The notes below the pieces were generated by a model that worked only from the letters and a program-made list of their open reading frames with translations, was not told the origin of the DNA and did not search any database. From Streptomyces sp. NBC_01217 (GTDB lineage Bacteria; Actinomycetota; Actinomycetes; Streptomycetales; Streptomycetaceae), in the NCBI RefSeq assembly GCF_035994185.1, contig NZ_CP108538.1:7071501-7135500 (forward strand): 64,000 bases of DNA, given 5' to 3'. Both the position numbers and the translations under genes were made by a program. This document shows positions 13,802 through 58,997 of the stretch, one piece after another (position 1 is the first letter of the stretch; every line of letters starts with the position of its first letter).

Positions 13802-14153
13802 GCGGTCCTCGCTGCGGTTCGGGATGGGGGCTGGGGTGGTGAGGACGTACTCGCGGCGCGAGATCCGCCGCGGGTGGTGGCCGTAAGATGGGGATCGCCT
13901 CGGCCGTCTGGGACTCGCTTGGCCGCCTGTCTCAGACGGTCGAGTGCTTTTGGATGAGGCAAGGAGAGGCGGGAAAACCCACGGGCTGGTCCCGCCCCCG
14001 GTTCGATAGGATGACGATGGCTTGCAGTCCCGTTCCGTCGCCATGAGTGTCGTCGACGTGTGATCGGAATGATCGCATCGGCTGCGGCCTCCTGACCTGG
14101 GCACGCCGTGGCAGCGCCATCGGCGCCGTACGTACGAAATGGAGCATCCAAGG

Positions 14154-15878
14154 ATGGCTCGACACCTGGTAACCAGCGCGCTTCCCTACATCAACGGGAT
14201 CAAGCACCTGGGCAACATGGTCGGGTCGATGCTTCCGGCGGATGTGTACTCCCGGTACCTCCGCCAGCGTGGCCACGATGTCCTCTACATCTGCGCCACC
14301 GACGAGCACGGCACTCCGGCTGAGCTCGCCGCGAAGGAAGCCGGACTTTCCGTCGCCGAGTTCTGCGCGCAGGCGCACGACGCGCAAAAGGCCGTGTACG
14401 ACGGTTTCGACCTCGCCTTCGACTACTTCGGGCGTAGCTCCTCGCAGCAGAATGTCGAGATCACCCAGCACTTCGCGCGCAAGCTGAACGAGAACGGCTT
14501 CATCGAGGAGCGTGCGATCCGTCAGGTGTACTCGCCGGTCGATGGCCGTTTTCTTCCGGACCGGTACGTCGAGGGCACCTGCCCGCACTGCGGGTACGAC
14601 AAGGCCCGAGGTGACCAGTGCGAGAACTGCACCCGCGTCCTGGACCCGACCGACCTGATCGACCCGCGCTCGGCGATCAGTGGTTCCACGGACCTGGAGG
14701 TCCGCGAGACCAAGCACCTCTTCCTGCTGCAGTCCAAGCTTCAGCCCGAGGTTGAGGAGTGGATCGCCACCGTCGGCGCGGAGTGGCCGCACCTGTCCAC
14801 GTCCATCGCCCGTAAGTGGCTGACCGAGGGTCTGAACGACCGTGCCATCACCCGCGACCTGGACTGGGGTGTGCCCGTCCCGGCCGACACCTGGCCGGAA
14901 CTCGCGGCCGAGGGCAAGGTCTTCTACGTCTGGTTCGACGCCCCGATCGAGTACATCGGCGCGACGAAGGAGTGGGCGGACGCCGCCTCCGGCAGTGAGA
15001 CCCGCGACTGGAAGTCGTGGTGGTACGAGGCTGACGACACTGTCCGCTACACGCAGTTCATGGCGAAGGACAACGTCCCCTTCCACACGGTGATGTTCCC
15101 GGCCACCGAGCTCGGCGTGCGTGAGCCCTGGAAGAAGGTCGACGTCGTCAAGGGCTTCAACTGGCTGACGTTCTACGGTGGCAAGTTCTCCACCTCCCAG
15201 AAGCGCGGCGTCTTCACGGACGCGGCCCTGGAGATCCTGCCCGGCGACTACTGGCGGTACTTCCTGATCGCCAACGCTCCCGAGTCGGACGACTCCTCCT
15301 TCACGTGGGAGCACTTCACCGCCACGGTGAACAAGGACCTGGCGGACACCCTCGGCAACTTCGTCAACCGCGTGCTGTCGTTCTCCCGCAAACGGTTCGG
15401 CGACGAGGTTCCGGCCGGGCACGCCGCCGGCGAGGCGGAGGCGAAGCTGGGTGAGGAGATCGCGCGTCTGCTCGGCGAGTACGAGGAGCAGATGGAGGCC
15501 CTTCAGTTCCGCAAGGCCGCCGCTGCCCTGCGTGCGCTGTGGTCCGCGGGCAACTCCTACCTGGAGGAGAAGGCTCCCTGGCTGGAGATCAAGACCGATG
15601 CTGAGGGCGCCGCGCTGACGCTCCGTACCGCGATGAACCTGATCCACCTGTACGCGGTCGTCTCCGAGCCGTTCATCCCGACCTCGACGGCCGCGATGCG
15701 CGGGGCCTTCGCTCTGGAGAACGACACCGCGACCTGGGTCACTGCCGACCAGGCCAAGTCCCTGGACACCGTCCCGGCCGACACCGCGTTCACGCTGCCG
15801 CCGGTGCTCTTCGCGAAGATCACGGAGGAGGACCTGGAGTCCTACCGTGAGCGCTTCGGCGGCGCCCCGCAGGTCTGA
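14154..15878 (+). CDS. metG: Methionyl-tRNA synthetase (additional copy type)
   Basis: A 574-residue class I synthetase that charges tRNA-Met. ATG 14154 ([20 protein letters not shown]) is the family start; ATG 14139 is less likely. HIGH-type motif at residues 17-21 (KHLGN), zinc knuckle CPHC...CENC (143-146 and 156-159), catalytic DEHGTPAE and the KMSKS-equivalent KFSTS at 344-348, where Thr replaces the usual Lys-Ser. The anticodon-binding domain ([19 protein letters not shown] onward) is complete. In Streptomyces the housekeeping enzyme, as I recall it, begins differently (YYVSTPIYYVNDAPHLGH), so this is probably a second, acquired MetRS. Such copies can confer resistance to MetRS inhibitors or back up the main enzyme. 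Confidence 0.92.
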
Positions 15879-16472: not shown

Positions 16473-17690
16473 TCACGCGGCGAGCTCAACGTCTTTCGGC
16501 GCCCGAGTCTCGTAGAAGGTGCCGTCGCGGAGCATGGCGAACAGGACGCTGATGCGTTGGCGGGCGAGGCGGAGGAGGGCTTGGGTGTGGGTCTTGCCGC
16601 GGGCGCGTTGCTTGTCGTAGTAGGCGCGGGAGGCGGGGTCGGCGTTCATACAGGCGAAGGCAGAGAGGAACATGGCGCGTTTGAGCTGCCGGTTTCCGCC
16701 TCGGGGGGCGTGTTCGCCGTGGATAGAGGTGCCCGACTGCTTTGTCGTGGGCGCGAGACCGGCGTAGGAGGCCAGGTGGGCGGCGGTGGGGAAGCTGGAG
16801 CCATCGCCGACGGTGACCAGCAGGACGGCGGCGGTCCTGACGCCGACGCCGGGCATCGAGGTCAGGACCTGGGAAAGAGGGTGGGCCTCCAGCAGGGCGT
16901 TGATCTGGGCTTCCATTGCCCGGCGTTGGGTGTGGACGGCGGCCAGGGACGCGGCGAGAGAGGGGATAACGATGTCGAGGGTGCCGGCGCCCGGGACCAC
17001 AACGGTTTGCTCGTCGAGCGCGTCGAAGACCTCGTCGATCAGCCGCTGGGCCATGCGTGGGGCCTTGGGCCGGATCAGTTCGACGAGCCTGCGGCGGCCG
17101 GCTTTGCGCAGGGCGGACGGGGAGCCGTAGCGCTCCAGCAGCCAGGTCACAGCCTGGTGGTCCAGACGTGGCCCGAGGACGCGTTCCAGGGAGGGGTGGA
17201 ACTGGGTGAGCAGGCCGCGTATCCGGTTGGAGGTGCGGGTGGCCTCTGCGGCGAGGTCCTGGTCGAAGCCGACGAGGACGGTGAGCTCGGCGGTGATCTC
17301 GTCGGTGAGTTCGAGCGAGCGCAGGGTGTGCGGCATGGTGCGGGCCGCGTCCGCGATCACCGCGGCGTCCTTGGCGTCGGTCTTGGCCTCGCCGGGGTAG
17401 AGGTCGGCGATCCGGCGCATGGCCAGGCCGGGCAGGTAGGCGACGCGGCAGCCGGCGTCGCGGGCGACGGTCAGCGGGAGGGCACCGATGGAGGCGGGCT
17501 GGTCCACGATGACCAGGACGGTGCCGAACTTCGCGGCAAGTTTGTCGAACACGGCCCGCAGCTTCGGTTCGCTGTTGGGCAGCGGCTTGTCGAAGACCTT
17601 CTTGCCGGCCGGGGTGAGTCCGTGGCCGTGGTGAGCGGACTTGCCGACGTCCAGGCCGAGGAACACGCCCACGTCTTCGATCTCGAACAT
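16473..17690 (-). CDS. IS110-family transposase (DEDD)
   Basis: 405 residues from ATG 17690 (MFEIEDVGVFLGLDVGKSAH), with GGAAGGG upstream. The N-terminal RuvC-like DEDD domain is seen in LGLDVGKS, VDQPASIGAL and EAKTDAKDAAVIADAAR. The C-terminal transposase_20 domain is seen in LTSMPGVGVRTAAVLLVTVG and SYAGLAPTTKQSGTS, with the conserved Ser. IS110 elements integrate with RNA-guided (bridge RNA) chemistry; the noncoding flank upstream (17691-17950) or downstream would be the place for such an RNA. No lesions are seen. Confidence 0.92.
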   Translation of the reverse strand: MFEIEDVGVFLGLDVGKSAHHGHGLTPAGKKVFDKPLPNSEPKLRAVFDKLAAKFGTVLVIVDQPASIGALPLTVARDAGCRVAYLPGLAMRRIADLYPGEAKTDAKDAAVIADAARTMPHTLRSLELTDEITAELTVLVGFDQDLAAEATRTSNRIRGLLTQFHPSLERVLGPRLDHQAVTWLLERYGSPSALRKAGRRRLVELIRPKAPRMAQRLIDEVFDALDEQTVVVPGAGTLDIVIPSLAASLAAVHTQRRAMEAQINALLEAHPLSQVLTSMPGVGVRTAAVLLVTVGDGSSFPTAAHLASYAGLAPTTKQSGTSIHGEHAPRGGNRQLKRAMFLSAFACMNADPASRAYYDKQRARGKTHTQALLRLARQRISVLFAMLRDGTFYETRAPKDVELAA

Positions 17691-17959
17691 CGCACCCTTC
17701 CAGGGGTGTTGACGGTGCCGGCCTCGGCTCGGGTGTCGTGCTCGCGCATCCACGTTATGCAGACCTGCCGCCCGCGAACTGCCCGGCATTGCGCCGGACC
17801 GGACGGTGGCCGGACCTCTGATCAGCGTCTCCGACGAACACCCCCGGACCCGGCGACACCACCCCCCAGGTCATGCCTTCGACAGGGGGCAACAGTCATA
17901 CCGGGCCCGGAGGCCAGCGGCCCCGTTGCAGGACCGCGAAAAAGATAACGGGGTAATTT

Positions 17960-33743: not shown

Positions 33744-34356
33744 GCCGCTCTGATGTACAACTCCGGCGTCCACGCCACCGTCGCCGGCGTCGCCATGGGC
33801 CTGATCCTGCGCACCACCCGCGACAAGGGAGAGGACACCGCGCCGGCCGCCCGTGTCTCGCACCTGCTGCACCCGGTCTCCCGCCGGTGTCGCGGTCCCT
33901 CTGTTCGCGCTCTTCGCCGCCGGCGTTGGCGTCTCCGTCGGAGCTCTCATGCACGTGTTCACCGACCCCGAACCGCTGGGGGCCGTCGTCGGTCTCGTCG
34001 CCGGCAAGATCCTCGGCATCTTCCTCGGCACGTACCTCGCCGCACGCTTCACCCGCGCCCGGCTCAACCCCGACCTCGCCCGGGCCGACGTCTTCGGGCT
34101 CGCCACCCTGGCCGGGATCGGTTTCACCGTCGCCCTCCTCATCGGCGAACTCGCCTTCTCGGCGGGCGCCGAGGCCGAACACATCAAGGCCGCTGTCCTC
34201 GTGGGCTCCCTCATTGCCGCGGCGTTGGCCGCTGTTCTGCTGCGACGCCGCAACCTCATCTACCGGCGCCTGTGCGAAGAGGAAGACCGCGACGCCGATG
34301 TCGACGGCATTGCCGACATCTACCAGTCCGGTGCGCGGCTTAACAGCGCGGGTTGA
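33744..34356 (+). pseudogene. NhaA Na+/H+ antiporter, C-terminal relic
   Basis: LMYNSGVHATVAGVAMGLIL then, after a one-base insertion near 33886, GVAVPLFALFAAGVGVSVGA, TRARLNPDLARADVFGLATL and AGIGFTVALLIGELAF. It is collinear with the intact NhaA at 57663-58997, including the DADVDGIADIYQ tail. The N-terminal half is missing. Confidence 0.82.
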
Positions 34357-36471: not shown

Positions 36472-37069
36472 AGGAATGAGGTGTGATTCGTCTGATTGGC
36501 CTACAGGTTCTTCGGTGGACTGATTGGTCTACACCCGTCCGACTGTAAGACGGCCGTCGAAGAGGAGGTCGAACTCGTTCAGCGCGCTCTTCCAGCGATT
36601 GTTCCAGCGCTGGCGGCCGCGTCCGGTGGGATCGAGGGCGAGGGTGGCCAGGTAGAGGCGCTTGAGGGCGGCGGTCTCGTTGGGGAAGTGTCCGCAGGCT
36701 TAGGCCGCGCGTCGGTAGCGGGCGTTCAGCGACTCGATGGCGTTGGTGGTGTAGACGACCTGGCGGATGGCGTCCGGGAGGCCGAGGAAGGGAACGAATT
36801 CGCTCCAGGACCGTTCCCAGATCCCGGTGATCGACGGGTACTTCTTGCCCCATGTGCCGTCGAAGTCGGCCAGTCGCTGCCGGGCCTGCTCCTCGTTGAC
36901 GGCCGTGTAGACGGGCTTGAGGTCGCGGGCGACGTCGGCCCAGTCGCGGCGGGACGCGTAGCGCAGGCTGCCGCGGATGAGGTGGACGATGCAGGTCTGC
37001 GCCACGGTCTGCGGCCACACGGTGTTCACCGCGTCGGGCAGGGCGGAGAGGCCGATGCCCCTATGGATG

Positions 37070-43276: not shown

Positions 43277-43699
43277 GTGTCGGCGTGTGAGGATCCGCCC
43301 GTGGAGTGTGATGTGTGCGGACTGGCGATGTGGCGGTGGCCGGTGCCGTCGACGGCCCGGGAAGAAGAGATCTGGTCCTGTTTGTGGTGTTATGCCGCCA
43401 CCCAGGTGGGCGGCGAATGGTTCGAGATCTTGCGACCGCCGTATCTGCCGATGGAGATGCGCTGGGAGAGGGCTGTCGCGGATGGCCTTGCCGCCGGCGC
43501 CTCCCACGCTTTTGGCATCTTCGACAAGACGCTGTGCGGGATCCAGGAACTCGGCATGTCACCGTCTGACCACTGGTGGCTGCCGGAACGGGAGAACGCC
43601 TGTGGCGCGTGCCGGGAAGCGGCGGGTGTCATTGATGACCGCTGGCCGCAGGCGATGAGGGGCGAGGACGCGCGGGTCAGCGTGGCCCGGCGGCTATGA
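43277..43699 (+). CDS. Hypothetical cysteine-rich protein
   Basis: 140 residues if started at GTG 43277 (VSACEDPPVECDVCGLAMW); a longer frame from 43187 overlaps the repeat end. Three Cys pairs (ECDVCG, SCLWCY, ACGACRE) suggest two structural zinc sites. The body is rich in Trp and Pro (ILRPPYLPMEMRWERAV). The last residues run into the IS5 element, so the natural C-terminus may be lost. The family is unknown. Confidence 0.55.
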   Translation: MSACEDPPVECDVCGLAMWRWPVPSTAREEEIWSCLWCYAATQVGGEWFEILRPPYLPMEMRWERAVADGLAAGASHAFGIFDKTLCGIQELGMSPSDHWWLPERENACGACREAAGVIDDRWPQAMRGEDARVSVARRL

Positions 43700-44536
43700 A
43701 TACTTCCAGTTCGGAGTCGATTCTCGGGTGAGCCTGCGGCTCATCAGGTCGATCAGCGCGAGGCGGATCATGGCTTCGGAGCGGTGCGGGTGGGCTTCGT
43801 AGTCGCGGGCGAGGCGGCGGTGGTGCATGAGCCAGCCGAAGGTTCGCTCGACGACCCAGCGCCGCGGAATCACCTTGAATCCCTTCTGGGCAGGGTCACG
43901 GCGGGTGACTTCGACGTCGACGCCGAGGCGGGCGCCGTGCTCGATGACCTTGGTGCGGTAGCCGGTGTCGGCCCAGGCTTTGGTGATGCGGGGGTGGTCG
44001 GTGGCGATGTTCGAGAGCACGTGGATGCCGCCGACGTTGTCGGAGACGCTGGCGGCGGTGACCAGCACAGCCAGGAGAAGGCCGAGTGTGTCGACGCCGA
44101 TGTGGCGTTTGCGGCCTGCGATCTTCTTGCCCACGTCGATGCCCTGGCCTGACGCGGGCACGTTCGCGGAGGTCTTGATGCTCTGGGCGTCGAGGATGCA
44201 GGCGGTCGGCTCGGCATCCCGGCCCTCGGCTTCTCTCACGAGTCGGCGGAGGAGGCTGTTGAGGTGGTCGAAGACTCCGTCCTTCTGCCATGCGGCGAAG
44301 TATCCGTAGACGGTTTCCCACGGGGCGAAGTCGTGCGGCAGGTACCTCCACGGGATTCCGGTGCGGTCGACGTAGAGGATGGCGTCCAAGATGGTACGCA
44401 GGTTGTGCTCGGGCGGCCGGCCGATGTCCAGGCCCTTCCCTCTCCGCTCGGCCCGCCAGGCCGTCAGTGTCGGTTCCAGCAGTTCCCAGCGGGCATCGGA
44501 CAGGTCACTTGGATACGGGCGGCGTTGGCGTGGCAT
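43694..44536 (-). CDS. IS5-family transposase (single frame)
   Basis: 280 residues from ATG 44536. N-terminal DUF4096 region (YPSDLSDARWELLEPTLTAW, GRPPEHNLRTILDAILYVDR), DDE blocks DAQSIKTSANVPASGQGIDV, ITKAWADTGYRTKVIEHGAR and RRWVVERTFGWLMHHRRLAR with YE. No frameshift is needed, unlike the two IS5 relatives near the start of the window. Full length and probably functional. I could not define its terminal repeats. Confidence 0.92.
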   Translation of the reverse strand: MPRQRRPYPSDLSDARWELLEPTLTAWRAERRGKGLDIGRPPEHNLRTILDAILYVDRTGIPWRYLPHDFAPWETVYGYFAAWQKDGVFDHLNSLLRRLVREAEGRDAEPTACILDAQSIKTSANVPASGQGIDVGKKIAGRKRHIGVDTLGLLLAVLVTAASVSDNVGGIHVLSNIATDHPRITKAWADTGYRTKVIEHGARLGVDVEVTRRDPAQKGFKVIPRRWVVERTFGWLMHHRRLARDYEAHPHRSEAMIRLALIDLMSRRLTRESTPNWKYS

Positions 44537-49593: not shown

Positions 49594-51252
49594 ATGAACA
49601 CAGGGGTGAAGGCCGGCATAGCCGGTGCGGGGACGGCGCTGCTGGTCCTCGGGGGGTTCGGTGCGTACAACATCGTGCACGGGCTGGCCTCCGGGACGAC
49701 AGGTGGCAGCCAGGCCTCGGCGGGGAAGAGGTTCGATCCGGCCGCAGTGTCGAGTTCGCCTCCGTCGGACACCAAGGCCGTCAAGGCGACGCAGGCTTTC
49801 CTCGACAGCTGGTCCGCGCAGCATCTTGAGGGCGCTGCGGGTGACACGGACGCGCCGAGCACTGCCGCGCAGGGACTGCAGGGGTACGCCGACGGGCTGC
49901 GCCTGAAGAAGCTGACCTTCGACGAGGTCGTCTCGGTGGGCCCTTCGACGGTGACGCCGGGTGCCACCAAGGTCACCTTCAATGTCACGGCCCAGATGGC
50001 GGGCGGCACCTGGAGCTACCCGAGCGCGGTAGCAGTGCTGCAGAGCACGGGTGGACAGGTAGCGGTGCACTGGAACAACTCGGTGCTCTATCCGGGCCTG
50101 GGCGACGATCAGTCGCTGACCGCGGGCAAACTCCCCGCCGACGCGAACACCGCCAAGGTCGTCGCGAGTGACGGCAAGACGGACCTGGCCAAGTTCTCCT
50201 CGCTGCAGGACATCGCGGCGACGATCCGCAAAAACGCCACACCCGCCGGTGGAAGCACCGGCACCGGCGTTGCGGTGACCAACGCGGGCGGCGGCGGGAC
50301 CAAGACGGTGAAGGTCTTCTCCAAGGGAGACGACCCGGTGATCAAGACAACCATCGACGCTCACCTCCAAGCCGTGGCCGAACGCGCTGTGAAGGACGAC
50401 CAGCTGGGCGGGAAGGCGGCCGGGACGGTGGCACTCGACTGGACAAACGGCCACATCCTCGCGATCGCCCACACGGGCGCGGACGGCGACATCGCCCTCA
50501 ACGGCATCAAGTCCCCGGGCTCCACGATGAAGATCATCACCTCGGCGGCGCTCTTCGACCAGGCGGGCCTCACCCCGAACAGCCCCGCCCCGTGCACGGA
50601 TTCACTGACCGCCAACAGCCAGTCCTTCCACAACGACTCGGGCGTACGGGCCAACCTCAGCGCCACGATCGCCCAGGCGTTCACCGTGTCGTGCAACACC
50701 TCCTTCATCAAGGACGGGTTCCGCGACCTCGTGCACAACGGCGACGCCTCCGCCCTGCATGACGAGGCCGTGAATGTCTTCGGCATGGGCAGCTGGTCGA
50801 TCGGCGGAGGCGTCGCCACCACCGACCCGAGCATCCCCTCGGACGTCCAAGGCGGCGACCAGGCAGCCCAGTTCATCGGACAGGGCAAGGTCACCGCCAC
50901 CCCGCTGTTCATGGCGTCCGTGGCGGCCACGGTGCGCAACTCCGGCTTCCACCAGCCGATCATCCTGCCGACACAGCAACAGGTCACCGCGCCCCGGACC
51001 ATCTCGGCCCGCACAGCCGGCTACCTGCAGACGATGATGCGCAATGTCGCCACCAGCGGTACGGCGGCACCGCGCCTGAGCGGACTTGCCGGCGTGGGAG
51101 CCAAGACCGGCACCGCGGAAGAAGGCGACCACACCAACGGCTGGCTGACCGCCTACAACTCCCGCATCGCCGTCGCAGCCCTCGTCGAGGGCGGGCGCTC
51201 CGGAGTCGACTCCGCCGGCCACGTCGTCCGACACCTGCTGACCGGAAGCTGA
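49594..51252 (+). CDS. Penicillin-binding transpeptidase with NTF2-like domain
   Basis: 552 residues from ATG 49594. An N-terminal signal anchor (AGIAGAGTALLVLGGFGAYN) is followed by an NTF2-like/MecA-N domain (AVKATQAFLDSWSAQHLEGA onward) and a transpeptidase domain with SxxK at Ser310-Lys313 (SPGSTMK), SxN at 366-368 (SCN) and KTG at 504-506 (GAKTGTAEEG). It cross-links peptidoglycan outside the membrane and is a beta-lactam target. It is an accessory copy away from division genes. Confidence 0.92.
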   Translation: MNTGVKAGIAGAGTALLVLGGFGAYNIVHGLASGTTGGSQASAGKRFDPAAVSSSPPSDTKAVKATQAFLDSWSAQHLEGAAGDTDAPSTAAQGLQGYADGLRLKKLTFDEVVSVGPSTVTPGATKVTFNVTAQMAGGTWSYPSAVAVLQSTGGQVAVHWNNSVLYPGLGDDQSLTAGKLPADANTAKVVASDGKTDLAKFSSLQDIAATIRKNATPAGGSTGTGVAVTNAGGGGTKTVKVFSKGDDPVIKTTIDAHLQAVAERAVKDDQLGGKAAGTVALDWTNGHILAIAHTGADGDIALNGIKSPGSTMKIITSAALFDQAGLTPNSPAPCTDSLTANSQSFHNDSGVRANLSATIAQAFTVSCNTSFIKDGFRDLVHNGDASALHDEAVNVFGMGSWSIGGGVATTDPSIPSDVQGGDQAAQFIGQGKVTATPLFMASVAATVRNSGFHQPIILPTQQQVTAPRTISARTAGYLQTMMRNVATSGTAAPRLSGLAGVGAKTGTAEEGDHTNGWLTAYNSRIAVAALVEGGRSGVDSAGHVVRHLLTGS

Positions 51253-51349
51253 CACCTGGCTCGTTGCCCGGGGCAGGGGCTTGGGCCCCGATCGGTGCGC
51301 TTCCGGAGGGGGGTGGTGCGGATGTTCGACGCGGTGATATTCGGCGTTG

Positions 51350-51432
51350 TGGTCGCCGCGCTCCTTGCGTACGGCTTTCGCCCTTTCCAGCACTTCGGCC
51401 CTCTTGGATGGGGTCAGTGCGGGCAGAGCCAT
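51350..51432 (-). pseudogene. Actinobacterial integration host factor (mIHF), N-terminal scrap
   Basis: ATG 51432 begins MALPALTPSKRAEVLERAKA, matching the start of mIHF (MALPPLTPEQRAAALEKA in Streptomyces, from memory). Homology is lost after about 27 residues. Confidence 0.6.
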
Positions 51433-51504: not shown

Positions 51505-51640
51505 GGTTTACCAGGTTTACGAGTGGACTGCCGGTGCGGTGAGCGCCACTGCCGTGGCCGCATCACCGGCTGGCGGGATTTACCGACTAGGCGCAAAGCG
51601 GACTACCACGGCTTTGTCGCCCCCTATCTCAAGAGATCGA
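51505..51640 (+). pseudogene. SET-domain protein, C-terminal scrap
   Basis: DCRCGERHCRGRITGWRDLP with HGFVAPYL resembles the post-SET cysteine cluster and end of bacterial SET-domain proteins. There is no start, and the upstream domain is missing. Confidence 0.45.
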
Positions 51641-51795: not shown

Positions 51796-52818
51796 TCAGT
51801 ACTGTTCGGTCTCGACGAAGCCCGCGTCCGCGTCGTCGTCGGCGCCGAAGGCGTCGGCAGCGGCGGTCGGGTCGAATCCGGGCGGGCTGTCCTTGAAACC
51901 CAGGCCCACGGCAGCCAGCTTCGCCTTGACCTCGTCGATCGACTTCGCACCGAAGTTGCGGATGTCGAGCAGGTCGGCCTCGGAACGAGCGACGAGCTCA
52001 CCCACGGAGTGGATGCCCTCACGCTTGAGGCAGTTGTACGAACGGACCGTGAGCTCGAGCTCCTCGATCGGCAGCGCCAGATCGGCGGCGAGCGCGGCGT
52101 CCGTCGGGGACGGGCCCATGTCGATGCCCTCGGCATCGATGTTGAGCTCGCGCGCCAGACCGAACAGCTCGACCAGGGTCTTACCGGCCGACGCCATGGC
52201 GTCACGGGGACGCATGGCCTGCTTGGTCTCGACGTCGACGATCAGCTTGTCGAAGTCGGTGCGCTGCTCGACACGGGTCGCCTCGACCTTGTACGTGACC
52301 TTGAGCACCGGCGAGTAGATGGAGTCGACCGGGATACGGCCGATCTCCTGGCCCGCCTGCTTGTTCTGGACGGCGGAGACATAGCCGCGACCGCGCTCGA
52401 CGGTCAGCTCCATCTCCAGCTTGCCCTTGCTGTTCAGCGTGGCCAGGACCAGGTCCAGGTTGTGGACCTCGACACCGCCCCGCAGGGCGATGTCAGCAGC
52501 CGTGACCAGGCCGGGACCCTGCTTGCGCAGGTACATCACGACCGGCTCGTCCTGTTCCGAGGAGACAACCAGCTGCTTGATGTTGAGGATCAGGTCGATG
52601 ACGTCCTCCCTGACACCCGGCACGGTGGTGAACTCATGCAGGACACCGTCGATCCGGATGCTGGTGACAGCAGCACCCGGGACCGAGGACAGGAGCGTAC
52701 GGCGGAGAGAGTTACCAAGGGTGTAGCCGAAGCCCGGCTCCAGCGGCTCGATCACGAACCGGGAGCGGAACTCGTCAACGACCTCTTCGGTCAGCGAGGG
52801 ACGCTGAGCGATAAGCAT
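51796..52818 (-). CDS. rpoA: RNA polymerase alpha subunit, stand-alone copy
   Basis: 340 residues from ATG 52818 ([20 protein letters not shown]), the normal length and start. The N-terminal assembly domain is intact ([60 protein letters not shown]), as is the C-terminal UP-element/activator-binding domain ([40 protein letters not shown]). It dimerises and nucleates polymerase assembly. Normally rpoA lies between rpsD and rplQ; here it is alone among relics. Differences from the Streptomyces consensus I remember cluster in the [20 protein letters not shown] region. GAAGGATC precedes the start; 52819-53193 upstream has no gene. Confidence 0.94.
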
Positions 52819-53193
52819 GCTTCGATCCTTCAGTCGCGGGCGCCCACTACTTGACGCCGTAGACACCGCACGCTATCGGTACTGTAACTAGACCTCACAA
52901 GAGGCCGCACCGCCCCGACGCCGCCAGGTGCCAGGTGCCGACTCAGCCGGCGGGACGGGAGAGTTACCCGAAGCGCACGACGCCTTTGCCGTCAGGCCGC
53001 AGACCGACGCGGTGGTGAGACGAAAGAGGCCCGGATCGGTGACCCGCCCACAGCCATGTACGCAAGGACCCGCTTCACACAGGCCTGATCCAGTCGAGGC
53101 CGGACAACGGCGCACCACGGCCCCGAGCCGTGATGCGCCGCGAAGGAACAGGAGTCGGCCAGCCTTCGGTACGAAGGGGCGACCCGGTATCGA

Positions 53194-53679
53194 TCAGTGG
53201 CGTCCGTTGTGGTCACGGCCACCGCGGTGGTAGCCCCAGGACGTGGAGTCGATCGTGCGGCCGTGGGCGTCGCGCAGGGTTGCGGTGTCGTGGTCGTTGT
53301 TCCACACGTAGGTGCGGCGGTCCTGGTAGACGTCACGGCTCGTGTCGCGGCCGGTACCGGTGTGGACGCGGACGGAGGTTCGGCCAGGTAGACGCAGGTC
53401 GAACCGGTAGGTGTGCCGGCTTTCGTCGGTCAGGGTCCAGTTCCTCAGGTTGACGCTGTTCCGGCCGGTGTTGGTGACGGTGACCCATTCACCGTTCAGG
53501 CTCCGGTTGGAGCGGTCATCGCGCCCAGGACTGTCGTACTGAACGTGGCCGACAACGACGGGCGAGTACCGGGACGGGGTACGGCCGTGGTCGTCGGCGC
53601 TCGCGGGCAGAGCAGCGGCGGTGAGCAGCGCGCCGGCCGTGAGGATGGTGGCGGTCAGACGACGGGTGGTACGGGACAT
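53194..53679 (-). CDS. Secreted lamin-tail-domain protein
   Basis: 161 residues from ATG 53679. A Sec signal peptide (TATILTAGALLTAAALPASA, cut after ASA) and an LTD fold: VVVGHVQYDSPGRDDRSNRS, GEWVTVTNTGRNSVNLRNWT, then VWNNDHDTATLRDAHGRTID and STSWGY. LTD proteins are beta-sandwiches found with extracellular nucleases or as wall proteins in Streptomyces. The interval 53680-53916 to the next gene holds no gene. Confidence 0.88.
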   Translation of the reverse strand: MSRTTRRLTATILTAGALLTAAALPASADDHGRTPSRYSPVVVGHVQYDSPGRDDRSNRSLNGEWVTVTNTGRNSVNLRNWTLTDESRHTYRFDLRLPGRTSVRVHTGTGRDTSRDVYQDRRTYVWNNDHDTATLRDAHGRTIDSTSWGYHRGGRDHNGRH

Positions 53680-53916
53680 GAAAACCCCTCAGGTGCGGGC
53701 TGAGACCGTGGGGACGGTTCAGCGGTTGTGCGGTTCCAGCGTGTGCCGGGACCGCCACTCTGACCGCTGCCGCACCTGGTCAGAGCGTGCCCCGAGGGGC
53801 GTTACATGAAAGGGGCATTCTTGTCACATTCGCCCGTACCGGACGTCGGTCCGTTTGTGTCGGGTCCTTGACAACCACTGCCTGCTGCACTGACCCGCAA
53901 CTCACCGCAGTCCACC

Positions 53917-57662: not shown

Positions 57663-58997
57663 ATGCCCCGGAGGTCTCGCGTGCCTGCTGCCCCGCGTGA
57701 GCGTTCCGTCTTCCTCGCTCTGCTGCCCTGGCCGGAGCGCGTGCAGGTGGCCCGGGCTCTGCGCACGGAGACGGTCGGCGGGCTGGTGCTGCTGGCGGCG
57801 GCCGTGGTGGCGCTGGTGTGGGCGAACACTCCGTTCAGCGGAGCGTACGAGCAGATACGCGACTTCTACTTCGGCATACCCGCGCTCGGTCTGGACCTGT
57901 CGGTGGGGCACTGGACCGCGGACGGACTGTTGACCGTCTTCTTCCTGGTCGCAGGGATCGAGCTGAAACGCGAACTGGTGGTCGGCGAGCTGCGGACCCC
58001 CGCCGCCGCCGCGCTGCCGGTGGTTGCCGCCGTGTGCGGTATGGCGGTGCCGGCCGCCCTCTACCTGGCCACCACCGGTATCGGCGGCAGCTCCGGGGCG
58101 GGGTGGGCGGTGCCGATGGCGACGGACATCGCCTTCGCGCTCGCCGTCCTCGCGGTGCTCTCCACTCACTTGCCCTCCGCCCTTAGGGCCTTCCTGCTGA
58201 CTCTGGCCGTGGTCGACGACCTCGGCGCCATCCTGGTGATCGCCGTGTTTTTCACCGCCGACCTGAACCCGCTGGCGCTCTGCGGGGCGCTGGCCGGGCT
58301 GGTGGTCTTCTACCTGCTCCAACGGTTCAGGGTGCGCGGCTGGTGGTGGTACCTGCCGCTCGGGGTGGCGATCTGGGCCCTGATGTACAACGGCGGGGTG
58401 CACGCCACGGTGGCTGGCGTGGCGATGGGCCTGATCCTGCGCACCACCCGCGACCAGGGAGAGAAGGCGTCGCCCGGGGAGCGTACGGAGCATCTGCTGC
58501 GGCCGGTCTCAGCCGGTGTGGCCGTTCCCCTGTTCGCCCTGTTCGCCGCCGGGGTGAGCATCTCGGCCGCCTCGCTCGGCGAGGTGTTCACCCGCCCCGA
58601 GCCGCTGGGCGTGGTGCTCGGCCTGGTCGTGGGCAAGACAGTGGGAATCTTCGCCGGCACCTATCTGGCGGCCCGGTTCACCCGCGCCCGGCTGAACCCT
58701 GACCTGGCCTGGGCGGATGTGCTCGCCCTGGCGGTGCTGGCCGGGATCGGCTTCACCGTCGCCCTCCTGATCGGCGAGCTCGCCTTCCCCGACCCGGCCG
58801 ACGCCGAGCACATCAAAGCCGCCGTCCTGCTCGGCTCACTCATTGCCGCTGCGGCGGCCGCGCTGCTGATCAAGCGCCGCAACGGGATCTACCGCCGCAT
58901 GTGGGAGGCGGAGACACGAGATGACGACGCCGACGGCGTCCCCGACATCTACCAGCAGGCCAGCCCCGGGCACGGCCGTGCCGGCGGCGGAGACTGA
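57663..58997 (+). CDS. nhaA: NhaA-type Na+/H+ antiporter
   Basis: 444 residues from ATG 57663; GTG 57681 is an alternative. About twelve helices. Signature blocks: VAGIELKRELVVGELRTPAA, PMATDIAFALAVLAVLSTHL and LAVVDDLGAILVIAVFFTAD, containing the paired Asp residues that bind Na+, and TRARLNPDLAWADVLALAVL with AGIGFTVALLIGELAF. It exchanges protons for sodium for salt and pH homeostasis. First gene of an operon with a CBS protein and two or three tiny membrane proteins; a dead 3' copy lies at 33744-34356. Confidence 0.93.
   Translation: MPRRSRVPAAPRERSVFLALLPWPERVQVARALRTETVGGLVLLAAAVVALVWANTPFSGAYEQIRDFYFGIPALGLDLSVGHWTADGLLTVFFLVAGIELKRELVVGELRTPAAAALPVVAAVCGMAVPAALYLATTGIGGSSGAGWAVPMATDIAFALAVLAVLSTHLPSALRAFLLTLAVVDDLGAILVIAVFFTADLNPLALCGALAGLVVFYLLQRFRVRGWWWYLPLGVAIWALMYNGGVHATVAGVAMGLILRTTRDQGEKASPGERTEHLLRPVSAGVAVPLFALFAAGVSISAASLGEVFTRPEPLGVVLGLVVGKTVGIFAGTYLAARFTRARLNPDLAWADVLALAVLAGIGFTVALLIGELAFPDPADAEHIKAAVLLGSLIAAAAAALLIKRRNGIYRRMWEAETRDDDADGVPDIYQQASPGHGRAGGGD

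What the first reader, a model, noticed from the sequence alone, without database searches (positions are those of the whole stretch)
51796..52818. Full-length stand-alone RNA polymerase alpha gene outside the ribosomal-protein operon
rpoA is normally single-copy between rpsD and rplQ. Here an intact 340-residue alpha lies alone between an IHF/SET relic and a lamin-tail gene. A second alpha could alter polymerase composition or activator response, or be a spare copy on a plasmid.
Basis: partly seen in the sequence, partly recalled or inferred. Interest (0 to 1): 0.75.

Follow-up and report, generated by a model that had tools for sequence, protein, structure and literature searches.

The report
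Roaming second RNA polymerase alpha gene
This Streptomyces chromosome carries, besides its normal copy, an intact second gene for the alpha subunit of RNA polymerase; it belongs to a family of spare alpha genes found on Streptomyces plasmids and scattered chromosome sites, whose coding part seems to be repeatedly overwritten by the host's own gene.

Summary
In detail: an intact 340-residue alpha gene lies on the minus strand at 51796-52818, and the same genome holds the ribosomal-operon rpoA 1.68 Mb away (14 residues and 52 bases different). It is not unique. Of 392 genomes of the genus, 64 show at least two near-full-length copies, and 21 Streptomyces plasmid records carry an rpoA. Neighbouring genes are mostly unshared among 70 accessory loci. 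Accessory and canonical copies separate well by upstream DNA, fairly by the C-terminal end, and hardly by codons 1-300; 23 of 33 accessory copies are closest to their own host's canonical gene. This points to an old accessory lineage overwritten by gene conversion. The window copy's upstream DNA is accessory-type, and a SET-gene relic sits tail-to-tail with it as on one Streptomyces plasmid, so the segment is probably plasmid-derived. Constraint is weaker than on canonical rpoA but present; expression is untested. Two rpoA genes were already reported in S. avermitilis (PMC3294249). Most likely an active alpha entering a minor part of RNA polymerase; a passenger copy is the main rival.

The parts
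51796..52818 (-). accessory rpoA, intact 340-aa RNA polymerase alpha subunit (ATG start)
52819..52930 (-). upstream element: interrupted palindrome, accessory-type box CCGATAGCGTGCGGTGTCTACGGCGTC, then a leader and RBS resembling the canonical leader; candidate promoter/leader, function inferred
   Evidence: no sigma-70 consensus match
51529..51630 (+). relic of a SET-domain gene, tail-to-tail with rpoA; 94% over 34 residues to the gene in the same position on the NBC_00724 plasmid
51334..51432 (-). relic of mihF (actinobacterial IHF), first 33 residues, 73% identical to a plasmid-borne mihF
53194..53679 (-). lamin-tail-domain gene; the region 53108-53800 is 91% identical to a stretch of the NBC_01717 plasmid
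49594..51252 (+). penicillin-binding transpeptidase-domain gene; neighbour only, not part of the unit

Best explanation
Shown: this is an intact member of an accessory rpoA lineage of Streptomyces, made of rpoA plus the intergenic DNA upstream of it, found on plasmids and at many unrelated chromosomal sites. Shown statistically: codons 1-300 of accessory copies are largely homogenised with the host's canonical rpoA, while the upstream DNA, and less sharply the end of the gene from codon 301, keep accessory identity. Inferred: the window copy came with plasmid DNA that later decayed. Inferred: it is expressed from its own upstream element, and its alpha pairs with itself or with the canonical alpha and enters host RNA polymerase, giving a minor RNAP population that differs mainly at 303-308 and in the NTD insert (112-114, 121). 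Conversion from the host gene keeps its assembly surfaces matched to the host's polymerase.
For: Two intact copies; 64 of 392 genomes with two or more matches of at least 300 residues (a lower bound, one search scored 5 candidates per genome); 21 Streptomyces plasmid records. All 58 canonical loci held have the L17 gene downstream; of 70 accessory loci only L038 does. Accessory/canonical label changes on trees: upstream 90 nt 4 (200 shuffles: mean 31.4, minimum 26), codons 301-end 11 (minimum 24), codons 2-300 26 (minimum 24). Own canonical nearest in 23 of 33 accessory copies; 1000 shuffles mean 1.1, maximum 5. In G047 the accessory copy shares 12 of the 13 residue changes of its host's canonical alpha, six of them in no other accessory copy, and the single-copy species G184 has the same 13. 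Accessory dN/dS 0.108. Seven alphaCTD DNA-contact positions unchanged in 70 of 70 (positions mapped by recalled E. coli numbering). Window upstream most like accessory L068 and L098 (0.80, 0.79; own canonical 0.52, best listed canonical 0.68). SET tail-to-tail with rpoA in the window, in L063 and on the NBC_00724 plasmid.
Against: No transcript or protein evidence. The palindrome is interrupted in the window copy, and no sigma-70-type promoter or terminator match was found. dN/dS is about four times the canonical 0.028, and 0.276 in the tail, which largely escapes conversion; since conversion imports a constrained sequence, low dN/dS and invariant DNA-contact residues (all before codon 300) are partly explained by it. 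The window's insert-domain marks P112L, P113R are shared only with L100 (with A114G too) and L101 among 70 copies, and those two are truncated or carry a stop. In aligned upstream bases the window is 0.85-0.88 identical to four of five plasmid copies (0.74 to the fifth) but also 0.80 to its own canonical. Ten of 33 accessory copies are not closest to their own canonical. Codons 1-150 alone keep a little accessory signal (24 label changes; lowest of 200 shuffles 25).
Confidence: 0.62

Rival explanations
1. A passenger copy: a duplicate brought in with plasmid DNA, intact because it is recent or overwritten by the host gene, with no function of its own and on the way to a relic.
For: Surroundings are decayed (SET and mihF relics, IS elements); weaker constraint; conversion alone can keep codons 1-300 intact. 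Broken relatives exist: G242 with an in-frame stop, G382 truncated, a 46-residue remnant in G234, and the first two are the copies that share the window's insert-domain marks. The window's upstream palindrome is interrupted.
Against: The upstream element, which is not converted, is still recognisably alike across many genomes and plasmids; dN/dS is below 1 even in the tail (0.276); carriage is widespread.
Confidence: 0.3
2. A recent private duplication of this strain's own rpoA.
For: Own canonical is the nearest of 31 canonicals (5.1% against a median of 8.2%), and leader and ATG resemble the own canonical.
Against: Upstream similarity 0.80 to accessory L068 against 0.52 to own canonical; the last 40 codons differ 15% from own canonical but 6-8% from several other copies, accessory and canonical alike; insert marks shared with accessory L100 and L101; same tail-to-tail SET arrangement as on a plasmid. 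Third-position differences are clustered (p = 0.007), though the longest unbroken run is not significant (p = 0.13).
Confidence: 0.05
3. A self-resistance copy: a drug-insensitive RNAP subunit kept beside a biosynthetic cluster.
For: Duplicated rpoB in Nonomuraea is a precedent for altered RNAP subunits in actinomycetes (PMC5431353, passages seen); a PBP gene is a neighbour.
Against: Ten window proteins scanned against Pfam include no secondary-metabolism family (not a full cluster search); neighbours are mostly unshared; most of the window copy's changes are rare among the other accessory copies, only 89Q and 307G being common.
Confidence: 0.03

Closest known systems
Canonical Streptomyces RpoA (PDB 7vpd and others; the species S. 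coelicolor is recalled)
   Same: Same length and domains, 96% identical, alphaCTD DNA-contact residues kept
   Different: Outside the ribosomal operon; 14 residues differ, incl. 112-114, 121 and 303-308; different upstream sequence
Second rpoA of Streptomyces avermitilis MA-4680 (Mukhamedyarov et al. 2011, PMC3294249)
   Same: Second rpoA outside the operon in a Streptomyces; described there as a fairly recent duplication
   Different: That sequence was not compared here, so membership in the same lineage is likely but untested; plasmid carriage and gene conversion do not appear in the passages that I saw
Francisella alpha1/alpha2 heterodimer (PMC3294249)
   Same: Two alpha genes in one genome that can give mixed polymerase
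   Different: The two Francisella alphas form mainly a heterodimer and are in all sequenced genomes of that genus; here codons 1-300 are homogenised and carriage is sporadic
Duplicated rpoB of Nonomuraea (PMC5431353)
   Same: Actinomycete with a second, altered RNAP core subunit gene
   Different: Beta, not alpha; a single rpoB locus was found in this genome

Membership tests
Bacterial RNA polymerase alpha subunit (RpoA) | Dimerisation, insert and C-terminal domains, full length | tested here: met
   Three Pfam domains over their cut-offs; match 1-340 to a 340-residue alpha chain in the PDB
Bacterial RNA polymerase alpha subunit (RpoA) | Intact alphaCTD DNA-contact residues | tested here: met
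   Seven positions unchanged in 70 of 70 accessory and 38 of 38 canonical copies (E. coli numbering recalled)
Bacterial RNA polymerase alpha subunit (RpoA) | Assembles into active RNAP | not testable with these tools
   No biochemistry available
Accessory Streptomyces rpoA lineage (grouping made here) | Copy outside the ribosomal operon (no L17 gene downstream) | tested here: met
   Canonical copy 1.68 Mb away; no L17 match in the window flanks used
Accessory Streptomyces rpoA lineage (grouping made here) | Accessory-type upstream region | tested here: met
   0.80/0.79 similarity to L068/L098 against 0.52 to own canonical; alignment with plasmid copies
Accessory Streptomyces rpoA lineage (grouping made here) | GTG start and TGGAGGC-type leader | tested here: not met
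   Window copy has ATG and a canonical-like leader. GTG is in 56 of 70 copies, ATG in 14 and in the five plasmid copies read, so GTG marks a large sub-group, not the whole lineage
Francisella-type obligate alpha heterodimer | Divergence at dimer and beta/beta' interfaces so that mainly the heterodimer forms | tested here: inconclusive
   Codons 1-232 are conserved (accessory dN/dS 0.074), but conversion contributes to that; dimerisation itself not testable

The most novel reading that the evidence does not exclude
A mobile-element-borne core subunit of the host's RNA polymerase: Streptomyces plasmids carry an alpha gene whose assembly and DNA-binding part (codons 1-300) is rewritten by the current host's own rpoA through gene conversion, so that it always fits the host enzyme, while its own upstream control region and C-terminal end are kept, letting the element re-tune host transcription wherever it lands.
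Probability: 0.22. Interest if true: 0.78.

Novelty: new member of a known kind. Interest (0 to 1): 0.46.

Why it matters
rpoA is usually treated as a single-copy marker gene. Here about one in six of 392 Streptomyces genomes has a second near-full-length copy, some relatives sit on plasmids, and conversion between copies can blur rpoA phylogenies. If the accessory alpha is incorporated, these strains run mixed RNA polymerases, which is directly testable in non-pathogenic laboratory Streptomyces and bears on how mobile elements influence host transcription.

Tried and rejected
Rejected: (1) plus-strand reading: no Pfam hit. (2) My first idea that the upstream palindrome and box are accessory-specific: they are an altered form of the intergenic DNA upstream of canonical rpoA (note 3 corrects note 2). 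(3) A conserved gene neighbourhood that would explain function: the largest non-rpoA cluster is in 9 of 70 loci; a 73-residue divergent ORF occurs in 7, six of them at nearly the same offset; the SET gene is near rpoA in 2 of 70 loci and 1 of 11 plasmid loci. (4) Phage carriage: 20 phage records, all under 60% identical, none labelled a Streptomyces phage. (5) A full second RNAP: one rpoB locus. (6) The longest-run test for conversion in the window copy alone is not significant (p = 0.13); the clustering test is (p = 0.007). (7) Promoter and terminator scan: nothing. (8) A conserved upstream hairpin: folding stands out in 29 of 29 canonical rows tested but only 25 of 64 accessory rows, so I do not claim it for the accessory lineage. 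(9) Labelling: L038, counted among the 70 accessory copies, has accessory upstream DNA but the L17 gene downstream and a canonical tail; it may be a recombinant or an assembly chimera. Rows dropped: L102 (partial) from the 70; L100 and L101 from dN/dS. Two identical G254 copies are both counted in the 23 of 33. In one search only rows L234 and L236 are valid; L235, L237 and L238 were read on the wrong strand and not used.

Full report
Observation. The window is G000:C1:7071501-7135500 in a 9.03 Mb two-contig genome with two full-length rpoA matches: the window copy and one at C1:5439714-5440733, which lies between S4 and L17 genes. They differ at 14 of 340 residues and 52 of 1023 bases, 39 at third codon positions; dN 0.019, dS 0.16 by NG86. 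Blastn similarity runs from about 40 bases upstream of the start to about 44 beyond the stop codon.

How common. In 392 genomes of the genus I re-searched the 87 with more than one match. By my count 64 of 392 have at least two matches of 300 or more residues, one of them (G242) with an in-frame stop; others show shorter or split second matches. This is a lower bound, as one search scored only 5 candidates per genome. The genus is Streptomyces: contig lengths such as G370:C11 (2,410,951) and G252:C4 (724,981) equal those of named Streptomyces records. In 148 genomes drawn from the class (11 of this genus, 137 others) the listing shows no second match of 300 residues outside the genus; G443 and G461 show partial second matches, and the end of the listing was cut. 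A 27-base accessory leader signature gave 82 stretches in named genomes; 80 are listed, 78 titled Streptomyces and two 'Actinobacteria bacterium OV320'. In PLSDB, 21 Streptomyces plasmid records carry an rpoA at 87-95% identity over 91-100% of the query, from 79 kb to 2.35 Mb; several come from one strain or show the same identity, so they are not 21 independent cases.

Anatomy. I read 70 accessory copies (window plus L033-L101) and 38 canonical ones, 31 of these from genomes that hold accessory copies. All 58 canonical loci held have the L17 gene downstream; among the accessory loci only L038 has. The gene upstream of canonical rpoA is S4 in this genome and in G047 and G069, and S11 lies directly upstream in 53 others. 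The DNA between has a palindrome, a TACCCTT box and a small leader hairpin. Most accessory copies have a related but distinct version; 56 of 70 start with GTG and 14 with ATG. Flanking genes are mostly unshared.

History. On trees, accessory and canonical labels need 4 changes for the 90 nt upstream, 11 for codons 301-end, 24 for codons 1-150, 27 for 151-300 and 26 for 2-300; 200 shuffles give means of 31.3-31.5 and minima of 24-26. So codons 1-150 keep a trace of accessory identity, 151-300 none that I can see. Of 33 accessory copies whose own canonical is held (31 canonicals), 23 are nearest to their own; 1000 shuffles gave 1.1 on average and 5 at most. The own-canonical preference is seen in codons 1-300 (0.038-0.039 against 0.065-0.067) and not in codons 301-end (0.119 against 0.121). 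G047 shows the direction: its accessory copy has 12 of the 13 changes of its host's canonical alpha, six of them in no other accessory copy, and the single-copy species G184 has the same 13. I conclude: an old accessory lineage with repeated conversion, at least in this case from host to accessory. A simple edge effect of recombination would also spare the ends, so no adaptive purpose is shown.

The window copy. Its upstream DNA is most like accessory L068 and L098 (0.80, 0.79), less like its own canonical (0.52; best canonical in the listing 0.68); it shares the box CCGATA..CGTGCGGTGTCTACGGCGTC with plasmid copies, with a short insertion. Its leader and ATG look canonical; codons 161-300 are 1.9% from its own canonical and 1.7% from another (L008), while P112L and P113R are shared only with accessory L100 and L101, and P121L only with L059 and L060. 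A SET-gene relic lies tail-to-tail with it; the NBC_00724 plasmid and chromosomal locus L063 have the same arrangement. The lamin-tail region is 91% identical to part of the NBC_01717 plasmid, and the mihF relic matches mihF near an end of the linear NBC_00624 plasmid. A plasmid origin is therefore likely, though the pieces match different plasmids.

Function. dN/dS is 0.108 among 68 accessory copies against 0.028 among 38 canonical ones; by part 0.074 (codons 1-232), 0.105 (245-312), 0.276 (from 313) for the accessory copies. DNA-contact positions of the alphaCTD are invariant. Conversion contributes to both, so they support but do not prove function. The tail varies most. I think it most likely that the protein is made and enters RNAP in a minor fraction (inference).

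Literature. PMC3294249 (abstract and passages seen) surveyed 1055 genomes in 2010 and names S. avermitilis MA-4680 among genomes with two rpoA, calling it fairly recent. PMC5431353 (passages) covers duplicated rpoB. Searches showed no other account of extra rpoA in Streptomyces in the titles and abstract starts listed (searches list 30 of 33 and 30 of 56 papers); passages of PMC13118837 name rpoA only among conserved genes. The library holds open-licence papers only.

Noticed in passing
window 14139-15878 (+): Methionyl-tRNA synthetase gene (PF09334, PF19303) only 25-35% identical to the other matches in the genome; another divergent copy of a housekeeping gene type in the same window.
   Followed up: partly
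L038 (G142:C73:48503-49519): A copy with accessory upstream DNA and GTG start but the L17 gene 186 bases downstream and a canonical tail: either recombination between the two rpoA loci or an assembly chimera.
   Followed up: partly
window 33853-34356 and 57663-58997 (+): A short ORF that looks by eye like a fragment of NhaA, and a full NhaA antiporter gene (PF06965) 24 kb away.
   Followed up: no
window 16473-17789, 36700-37029, 43694-44536: Transposase genes or fragments of IS110, Mutator and IS4/5 types; further ORFs in 1-8 kb look transposase-like by eye. The window looks like variable, insertion-rich DNA.
   Followed up: partly
L078 and L079 (G254:C1:608773 and 10931041): Two rpoA copies with identical coding sequence in opposite orientation about 0.61 Mb from each end of one contig, as if in long terminal inverted repeats.
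   Followed up: partly
L232, plasmid NZ_CP107747.1 2105-10289: A linear plasmid carries mihF and a DNA polymerase III beta gene close together near its end; ssb lies just upstream of rpoA in L216 and L217. Such plasmids seem to collect information-processing genes.
   Followed up: partly
G234:C1:5580760-5580897; L100 (G382); L101 (G242): A 46-residue remnant of rpoA, and two related accessory copies with a damaged C-terminal end, the one in G242 with an in-frame stop.
   Followed up: no
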